A stretch of DNA of 11,642 nucleotides, from assembly GCA_023539445.1 (NCBI GenBank), contig JAKCEW010000017.1, positions 1 to 11,642 on the forward strand, read 5' to 3'. This document shows, piece by piece, positions 1,728 to 6,867 of the stretch (positions are counted from its first letter, which is position 1; each line of letters starts with the position of its first letter). Source of the stretch: Candidatus Terraquivivens yellowstonensis (GTDB lineage Archaea > Thermoproteota > Nitrososphaeria_A > Caldarchaeales > Wolframiiraptoraceae). The position numbers were made by a program, and so were the translations under genes. The notes beneath the pieces were generated by a model. The model was not told where the DNA came from. It ran no database searches and worked only from the letters and a program-made list of their open reading frames with translations.

Positions 1728-1800
1728 TTAGCCATTTAATAGGTAATACGTTTGTATTATGGCCTAGAAGGCATCTAGAGGCAATAGAAGAATGATTTAA

Positions 1801-1872
1801 TGGACCGGGCGGGACTCGAACCCGCGACCTCCCGCGTGCGAGGCGGGCGCGCTTCCGCTACGCTACCGGCCC
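1801..1872 (-). tRNA. tRNA-Ala (anticodon CGC)
   Basis: A complete 72-nt cloverleaf on the minus strand: acceptor GGGCCGG/CCGGTCC with the G3:U70 wobble pair that marks alanine tRNAs, anticodon stem CCCGC/GCGGG with loop CTCGCAC (anticodon CGC at 1838-1840, reading GCG), and T arm GCGGG-TTCGAGT-CCCGC. The discriminator base is A (1801). CCA is not encoded, unlike the tRNA-Asn in this window. No intron. It lies 45 bp beyond the end of the metal-transporter operon. Confidence 0.97.
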
Positions 1873-1917
1873 ATTCACTCTTTTATCTTTTCATGAAACG
1901 AGGCCGTAATTATACCT

Positions 1918-5067: not shown

Positions 5068-6720
5068 GTGCCGAAGTATATCTTCGTAACAGGCGGCGTA
5101 GTCTCGTCGGTTGGTAAGGGCATAGTCGCGGCCTCTGTTGGCAGGATTTTACAGGCCAGGGGTTACAGGGTAACTGCTATCAAGATAGATCCTTATCTAA
5201 ACGTTGACAGCGGTACGATGAACCCATACGCTCACGGTGAAGTTTTCGTTACCGATGATGGTGGTGAAACCGACCTAGATATAGGATGGTATGAACGGTT
5301 TCTAGATATCACACTTTCAAAGCGTAACAACATAACGACTGGGCAGGTTTATTTGGAGGTCATTACTAAAGAAAGACGCGGAGATTACTTAGGCAAGTGT
5401 GTCCAGATAGTCCCCCATATAACCGACGAGATTAAGCGTAGAATAAGGCTAGTTGCAGAGGGAAATGGTGTTGATATAGCTATAGTCGAGATAGGCGGCA
5501 CAACAGGCGACATAGAGGGACAACCATTTTTAGAAGCCGCAAGGCAAATGCGTCTCGAGGAAGGGTTCGAGAACACACTTTTCATCCACGTAGCCTTGGT
5601 ACCTATACTGAAGGCCACCGAGGAATTTAAGACCAAAGCATTGCAGCATAGTGTAAACGAGTTGCGTAGGATAGGTATACAACCGGATGCCATCGTAGCA
5701 AGATGCGAAAAGCCAATAGACAGCGCGACAAGAAGTAAGATAGCTTTGTTCGGAACGCTTCCAGAGAGCGCAGTTTTTTGCTCCTACGATGTGGAATACG
5801 TGTATGAAGTGCCACTGATACTGGAAGAACAGGGCATGGGTGTTTTTATAACTGGTAGGCTTAACCTTAGTTGGAGACAACCGAGACTGAAGGAATGGAG
5901 CGATATAGTTGCTTCGATGAAGAACGCCAAAGAAGAGGTTAAGATTGCCGTATGTGGTAAGTATACCAAGCTTATAGATTCTTACGTTAGCGTAAAGGAA
6001 GCGCTAATACATGCCGCAGCTTATGCAGGCGCAAAGGCAGTCATAGATTGGGTAGATGCAGAAGAATTCGAGACACATCCTGAAAGGGTAAACTTGCTCA
6101 GTAGGTATGATGGCATATTAGTACCGGGCGGATTTGGTCAAAGAGGTGTCGAGGGTAAGATAAGCGCAATCAAGTATTCTAGAGAGAACGGCATACCGTT
6201 TCTTGGAATATGCTTTGGTATGCAGCTTTCAGTTGTCGAATATGCGAGAAATGTTTGCGGTCTTGAGGAAGCCAACAGCACAGAAGTATCGGCAGATACA
6301 CCGCATCCCGTCATAGACCTTTTACCGGAACAACGCAATCTTGAAAACTTAGGGGGCACTATGAGGCTCGGGGGGTTCGAGATCATCATAAAACCCGGAA
6401 CGTTGGCGCACAAGCTCTACAATTCCAGCATTATACGTCAAAGACACCGTCACAGGTATGAGGTCAACCCAGCATATTGGGACGTTTTAACGCGTGCGGG
6501 CATGATCTTTTCGGGCATGTCTGAAGATGGTCGAAGGGTTGAGATCATCGAGTTACCAAATCATCCGTACTTTATAGCAACTCAATACCATGCAGAGTTT
6601 GTCTCAAAACCAGGGAAACCCGAGGCGGCATACTTGGGGTTTATAAGGGCCGCCCTCAAAAGAAGAAAGAGCCTTGAAAACCACAGCAAATCAAAATACG
6701 TTTCAATATACAATGGTTAG
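5068..6720 (+). CDS. pyrG: CTP synthase (glutamine-hydrolysing)
   Basis: Makes CTP from UTP, ATP and glutamine, the last step of de novo pyrimidine nucleotide synthesis, in the cytosol as a tetramer. The 550-aa protein is full length. The N-terminal synthetase domain (about 1-265) has the GGVVSSVGKG loop (9-18), the conserved IKIDPYLNVDSGTMNPYAHG block (38-57) and EIGGTTGDIE (141-150). The C-terminal class I glutamine amidotransferase domain (about 290-530) has oxyanion motif GGFGQRG (354-360), nucleophile C382 in GICFGMQ, RHRHRYEVN (459-467) and the catalytic H508 and E510 in QYHAEF. The last 20 residues are basic and variable. The GTG start fits the canonical MPKYIFVTGG N-terminus and the leaderless promoter. 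It stands alone, divergent from the metal operon. Confidence 0.98.
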   Translation: MPKYIFVTGGVVSSVGKGIVAASVGRILQARGYRVTAIKIDPYLNVDSGTMNPYAHGEVFVTDDGGETDLDIGWYERFLDITLSKRNNITTGQVYLEVITKERRGDYLGKCVQIVPHITDEIKRRIRLVAEGNGVDIAIVEIGGTTGDIEGQPFLEAARQMRLEEGFENTLFIHVALVPILKATEEFKTKALQHSVNELRRIGIQPDAIVARCEKPIDSATRSKIALFGTLPESAVFCSYDVEYVYEVPLILEEQGMGVFITGRLNLSWRQPRLKEWSDIVASMKNAKEEVKIAVCGKYTKLIDSYVSVKEALIHAAAYAGAKAVIDWVDAEEFETHPERVNLLSRYDGILVPGGFGQRGVEGKISAIKYSRENGIPFLGICFGMQLSVVEYARNVCGLEEANSTEVSADTPHPVIDLLPEQRNLENLGGTMRLGGFEIIIKPGTLAHKLYNSSIIRQRHRHRYEVNPAYWDVLTRAGMIFSGMSEDGRRVEIIELPNHPYFIATQYHAEFVSKPGKPEAAYLGFIRAALKRRKSLENHSKSKYVSIYNG

Positions 6721-6730
6721 CAAATTTAAC

Positions 6731-6744
6731 TAAAAATTTAAAAT
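6731..6744 (+). promoter_or_regulatory. TATA-like promoter of tRNA-Asn
   Basis: AT-rich TAAAAATTTAAAAT is centred about 32 bases before the first tRNA base, in the short gap after the CTP synthase stop. This is an acceptable distance for an archaeal tRNA promoter with a few bases of 5' leader. Confidence 0.4.
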
Positions 6745-6770: not shown

Positions 6771-6867
6771 GCCGCGGTAGCTCAGCTCGGTAGAGCAGCG
6801 GACCTCGTAAAGGGGGCTGAAGCTGTTAACCCGTTGGTCGTCGGTTCGAATCCGACCCGCGGCGCCA
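6771..6867 (+). tRNA. tRNA-Asn (anticodon GTT) with a 20-nt intron at position 30/31 and encoded CCA
   Basis: Acceptor GCCGCGG (6771-6777) pairs with CCGCGGC (6857-6863). The discriminator is G (6864), as in asparagine tRNAs, and CCA is encoded at 6865-6867. D arm GCTC...GAGC and T arm GTCGG-TTCGAAT-CCGAC are standard. The anticodon arm closes only if 6802-6821 is removed: GCGG plus G (6798-6801, 6822) then pairs with CCCGT (6830-6834, with one G:U), and the loop is CTGTTAA with anticodon GTT at 6825-6827. The mature tRNA is 74 nt before CCA. An unspliced reading with loop CTCGTAA (Thr CGT) does not give a paired stem. Confidence 0.95.
6802..6821 (+). other. tRNA intron with canonical bulge-helix-bulge splice sites
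   Basis: The fold has a central 4-bp helix CAGC (6796-6799) with GCTG (6816-6819). It is flanked by 3-nt bulges GGA (6800-6802) and AAG (6820-6822). An inner helix CCTC/GGGG (6803-6806, 6812-6815) closes loop GTAAA. Cutting after the second base of each bulge releases exactly the 20 bases needed to restore the anticodon stem. Position 30/31 is non-canonical (the usual site is 37/38). Confidence 0.92.

What the first reader, a model, noticed from the sequence alone, without database searches (positions are those of the whole stretch)
6771..6867. tRNA-Asn(GTT) with a 20-nt non-canonical intron at 30/31 and a textbook bulge-helix-bulge
Without removing 6802-6821 the anticodon stem cannot form. 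The precursor folds into a strict 3-4-3 bulge-helix-bulge whose two cut sites release exactly the needed 20 bases. The intron splits the 5' strand of the anticodon stem rather than the loop. Such sites are processed by the broad-specificity (heterotetrameric) splicing endonucleases known from Thermoproteota and relatives. An intron-blind caller could call this Thr(CGT) or miss it.
Basis: partly seen in the sequence, partly recalled or inferred. Interest (0 to 1): 0.65.

Follow-up and report, generated by a model that had tools for sequence, protein, structure and literature searches.

The report
tRNA-Asn gene with archaeal splicing intron
This is a normal asparagine tRNA gene of a heat-loving archaeon (a Terraquivivens relative) that carries a 20-base intron in an unusual but already described place; the genome also encodes the splicing enzyme expected to remove it, so the finding is real but ordinary in kind.

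Summary
Window 6771-6864 encodes tRNA-Asn(GTT), interrupted at tRNA position 30/31 by a 20-nt insert (6802-6821); removing it restores a complete cloverleaf. All five other genomes of the genus carry an intron of 18-21 nt at the same site. Orthologs in sister genera lack it, with the exon junction exactly where predicted. The same Asn 30/31 intron recurs across the phylum, and its hairpin and 4-bp core helix covary (100% of 90 cells paired, covariation 0.465 against 0.147 shuffled), which fits a strict 3-4-3 bulge-helix-bulge (BHB). One correction: the minimum-energy fold of the precursor is not that BHB. A register-shifted competitor is 6.3 kcal/mol lower at 37 C, but comparative data reject it. 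The genome has one tRNA-Asn gene, two EndA genes (a catalytic alpha with the Crenarchaea-specific-loop lysine and a degenerate beta) and RtcB; about 21 of 44 tRNA-like loci need an intron removed. Position 30/31 is listed in the literature as a known non-canonical site, so this is a new member of a known kind. ARAGORN miscalls it as Leu(TAA), not Thr(CGT). Splicing itself is inferred; no RNA data were available.

The parts
6771..6801 (+). tRNA-Asn exon 1 (positions 1-30)
   Evidence: intronless orthologs join here
6802..6821 (+). 20-nt intron at tRNA position 30/31
   Evidence: same site in all 6 genus genomes
6822..6864 (+). tRNA-Asn exon 2 (positions 31-73), anticodon GTT at 6825-6827; CCA follows at 6865-6867
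6796..6799 (+). 5' strand of the BHB central helix (C25 A26 G27 C28), pairs with 6816-6819 GCUG
   Evidence: covariation CAGC/GCTG, CAAC/GTTG, CGCC/GGCG, CACC/GGTG
6800..6802 (+). 5' bulge GG|A, cut predicted between 6801 and 6802
6803..6815 (+). intron hairpin CCUC-GUAAA-GGGG (inner helix 6803-6806 with 6812-6815)
6816..6819 (+). 3' strand of the BHB central helix (GCUG)
6820..6822 (+). 3' bulge AA|G, cut predicted between 6821 and 6822
6731..6743 (+). A/T-rich box TAAAAATTTAAAA about 30-40 nt upstream, conserved in the 6 genus genomes; probable TATA-type promoter of the tRNA gene
   Evidence: upstream sequences side by side; assignment inferred
5068..6720 (+). CTP synthase gene (pyrG) directly upstream; same order seen in the named relative L033

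Best explanation
6771-6864 is the single functional tRNA-Asn(GUU) gene of a Terraquivivens-like archaeon (Caldarchaeales, 'Aigarchaeota'). Its transcript holds a 20-nt BHB intron at 30/31. The heterotetrameric (alpha-beta)2 splicing endonuclease cuts after 6801 and after 6821, and RtcB most likely joins the exons, which restores the anticodon stem. Shown here: cloverleaf only after removal, position, covariation of the BHB, intronless orthologs, presence of both EndA subunits and RtcB. Inferred: transcription, cleavage, ligation, and that the BHB forms transiently or with protein help despite a more stable competing fold.
For: Rfam tRNA match with insertion. Spliced cloverleaf and BHB. Same-genus conservation of position with divergent introns of 18, 20 and 21 nt. 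Intronless sister-genus orthologs with the exact junction. Phylum-wide Asn 30/31 introns with compensatory changes in the central and inner helices: 100% of 90 cells paired, 12 double-changed cells, covariation 0.465 against 0.147 shuffled, while the competing register shows no excess covariation. Only one GTT tRNA among 44 tRNA matches. Two EndA genes: alpha is 1e-49 to A. pernix EndA 3p1z_B with the FAVY, IDHAPF and TVRKRF stretches conserved and a Lys aligned to CSL K44; beta is a divergent EndA relative lacking the His stretch. RtcB present. Other tRNAs of the genome carry 29/30 or 30/31 introns (Ile, Met, Gly, two Arg).
Against: No RNA evidence. The minimum-energy fold of the precursor is a register-shifted structure, 6.3 kcal/mol below the BHB-constrained fold at 37 C and 2.8-3.6 below at 70-80 C, and the overall fold is not unusually stable (z -1.5). 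The genome is a draft in 35 contigs.
Confidence: 0.96

Rival explanations
1. A pseudogene or decaying tRNA-Asn broken by a random 20-nt insertion.
For: An intron-blind caller misreads it.
Against: It is the only Asn tRNA found; exons are intact; an insert sits at the same site in 6 of 6 genus genomes with the BHB kept while the loop varies; the upstream A/T box is conserved.
Confidence: 0.01
2. A true intron, but cleaved through the alternative, more stable register (A bulge and GAA bulge) and not through the strict BHB.
For: It is the minimum-energy structure at 37-75 C.
Against: In that register 3-nt bulges do not flank a 4-bp helix at the needed cut points; across 13 lineages it shows no covariation above shuffles (0.104 against 0.101) and breaks in the f26, f2 g9 and f29 lineages, while the BHB is kept.
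Confidence: 0.03
3. A tRNA-Leu(TAA) or other isotype without intron, as ARAGORN reports.
For: ARAGORN output.
Against: It needs a malformed anticodon arm; the genome has a separate intact Leu(TAA) (L019); orthologs without the insert are Asn(GTT).
Confidence: 0.005

Closest known systems
Archaeal non-canonical BHB tRNA introns (position 30/31 class)
   Same: Position 30/31 is listed among known non-canonical sites (PMC4090602); strict BHB geometry; short intron; heterotetrameric EndA host.
   Different: No earlier report of this gene, or of tRNA-Asn in Terraquivivens, was found in the searched library; nothing structural differs.
tRNA introns of Caldiarchaeum subterraneum (Aigarchaeota)
   Same: Same broad lineage; 13 of 45 tRNA genes with introns at canonical and non-canonical sites (PMC3293823).
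   Different: This genome appears richer: about 21 of 44 tRNA-like loci, by my own script.
Split tRNA-Lys(CUU) at 30/31 in Nanoarchaeum and Staphylothermus
   Same: Same junction, same BHB principle (PMC4090602).
   Different: Here both halves are in one gene 20 nt apart (cis).
Aeropyrum pernix (alpha-beta)2 EndA (3p1z, 3ajv)
   Same: The alpha subunit aligns over residues 14-188 with catalytic stretches and the loop lysine conserved; the CSL Lys gives broad specificity (PMC6379350).
   Different: The beta subunit is only distantly similar to solved chains.

Membership tests
Archaeal tRNA-Asn(GUU) | Complete cloverleaf with GUU anticodon after splicing | tested here: met
BHB tRNA intron | Two 3-nt bulges separated by a 4-bp helix, cuts within the bulges | tested here: met
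   Sequence and covariation; the minimum-energy fold differs
BHB tRNA intron | Excised by EndA in vitro or in vivo | not testable with these tools
   No RNA data
BHB tRNA intron | Intronless homologs equal the spliced product | tested here: met
Heterotetrameric (alpha-beta)2 EndA with Crenarchaea-specific loop | Two EndA genes, one catalytic and one structural | tested here: met
Heterotetrameric (alpha-beta)2 EndA with Crenarchaea-specific loop | Loop lysine equivalent to A. pernix K44 | tested here: met
   Lys45 of the 189-aa protein aligns to K44; role from PMC6379350
Heterotetrameric (alpha-beta)2 EndA with Crenarchaea-specific loop | Assembly as a 2+2 heterotetramer | not tested
   No structure job was run
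Split (trans-spliced) tRNA | Halves transcribed from separate loci | tested here: not met
   Both exons lie together at 6771-6864

The most novel reading that the evidence does not exclude
The Asn 30/31 intron occurs in about a dozen families of the phylum with unrelated hairpins but the same boundaries. It could be either one very old intron kept patchily or a hotspot where BHB introns have been gained many times. The shared xG|A and A(A/G)|G edges also occur in other isotypes of this genome, so they fit an enzyme preference and do not prove common descent.
Probability: 0.4. Interest if true: 0.4.

Novelty: new member of a known kind. Interest (0 to 1): 0.2.

Why it matters
Mainly for annotation: intron-blind callers lose or misname the only Asn tRNA of this genome. 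It also adds a clean case in which comparative covariation, and not the fold of one sequence, identifies the splicing substrate, and a set of 24 Asn 30/31 introns for studying how such introns are gained and lost.

Tried and rejected
Thermodynamic fold as proof of the BHB: rejected, since the minimum-energy fold is another register. Tandem-duplication origin from the GGGCTG/GCTG repeat: rejected as evidence, because the repeat is forced by pairing to CAGC and disappears in lineages with CAAC, CGCC or CACC. Shared A at the first intron base as proof of common descent: rejected, since other isotypes in the genome show it too. G019 (family f1, genus g2) as evidence of intron sharing between sister genera: set aside, because contig C117 carries a multi-intron Asn gene resembling those of other families and may be binned wrongly. 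G029/G033 have an intron of roughly 65-70 nt at about 37/38 in place of 30/31.

Full report
What is there. The window lies in a 1.16-Mb, 35-contig archaeal draft genome. The closest named relative by CTP synthase is Candidatus Terraquivivens ruidianensis (87% identity; taxonomy). Directly downstream of pyrG (5068-6720), 6771-6864 matches the Rfam tRNA model at 52.9 bits with an insertion in the anticodon arm. ARAGORN reports tRNA-Leu(taa) there. An intron-aware scoring script finds one clearly best reading: removal of 6802-6821 gives a full cloverleaf, anticodon GTT, with the intron between the fourth and fifth base of the anticodon stem, position 30/31. The next-best reading scores 19.4 against 31.0.

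Boundaries. Orthologs in sister genera of the same family align as query 1-31 joined directly to query 52-95, i.e. exactly without 6802-6821 (sequences). All five other genomes of the genus carry an intron of 18-21 nt at this site. The named relative L033 has it too.

Splicing motif. The junctions give bulges GG|A and AA|G, a central helix CAGC/GCUG and an inner helix CCUC/GGGG. In 20,000 shuffles of the intron letters none met the motif. A thermodynamic fold of the lone precursor prefers another register in which CAGC pairs with exon 2; the BHB-constrained fold is 6.3 kcal/mol higher at 37 C and 2.8-3.6 higher at 70-80 C. The question is settled by comparison. A search of 398 genomes of the phylum yielded 24 tRNA-Asn genes with an intron at this site, listed and tested. 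In all 24 the four central pairs form, with exon CAGC, CAAC, CGCC or CACC each matched by intron GCTG, GTTG, GGCG or GGTG. On a 13-sequence alignment the BHB has 100% of 90 cells paired, 12 cells changed on both sides and a covariation score of 0.465 against 0.147 shuffled. The competing register shows no excess over shuffles (0.104 against 0.101) and breaks in three lineages.

Machinery. The genome has two EndA-type genes. The 189-aa protein aligns along its length to Aeropyrum pernix catalytic EndA (3p1z_B, 1e-49) with the Tyr, His and Lys stretches conserved and a lysine aligned to K44 of the Crenarchaea-specific loop, the residue linked to broad substrate range (PMC6379350). The 195-aa protein is a divergent EndA without the His stretch and fits a structural beta subunit. 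RtcB is present. That these form a heterotetramer and act on this RNA is inferred.

Context. Among 44 tRNA matches only this one reads GTT (pattern check). By my script about 21 of the 44 need one or two introns removed, including 30/31 introns in Ile(GAT) and Met(CAT), and 29/30 introns in Gly(TCC), Arg(GCG) and Arg(TCG). Four loci (Val, Ser, Trp, His) are not fully resolved, so the count is approximate. Position 30/31 is listed as a known non-canonical site (PMC4090602), and the related Caldiarchaeum has 13 of 45 tRNA genes with introns (PMC3293823).

Verdict. The part that might deserve more attention is evolutionary: why the same site of the same tRNA carries an intron in about a dozen families. 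Other isotypes share the edge bases, so an enzyme preference explains those; whether the intron is old or repeatedly gained is not settled here.

Noticed in passing
G000:C3:3791-3897 (-), loci L118/L218; relatives L219-L223: tRNA-Asp(GTC) appears to carry a 29-nt intron in the 3' strand of the acceptor stem (68/69: CCA[tggggagggttgaaaccctgcccgccgaa]GGGC) with a strict BHB, present in all 6 genomes of the genus and absent in the orthologs of another family that were read. I did not find this position named in the papers read, but the search was not exhaustive.
   Followed up: partly
L221 about 1473-1500; L223 about 1433-1500: In G003 the same tRNA-Asp seems to have a further intron in the 5' acceptor strand (GCCCT[agcccgatgggcggcaag]GG) whose BHB uses a leader base; in G004 a D-arm intron flanked by a GTATAG repeat. 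Extra copies of the acceptor 5' strand (GCCCTGG) lie just upstream in both.
   Followed up: partly
G000:C28:21582-21637 (-), locus L119: tRNA-His: the acceptor 5' strand GGCCGCGG occurs twice in tandem ahead of a D-arm insert, similar to the tRNA-Asp duplications.
   Followed up: no
L145, L146 (G033, G029): tRNA-Asn of another family of the order has an intron of roughly 65-70 nt at about 37/38 and none at 30/31.
   Followed up: no
L133, L135, L141 (G060, G019, G053): tRNA-Asn genes with the 30/31 intron plus further inserts in the acceptor/D or T arm; in G019 an integrase-like gene lies next to it.
   Followed up: no
window 1800-1873 (-): tRNA-Ala(CGC), intronless, next to what reads as a metal-type ABC transporter operon and a DtxR-like regulator (names from reading the translations, not searched).
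   Followed up: no
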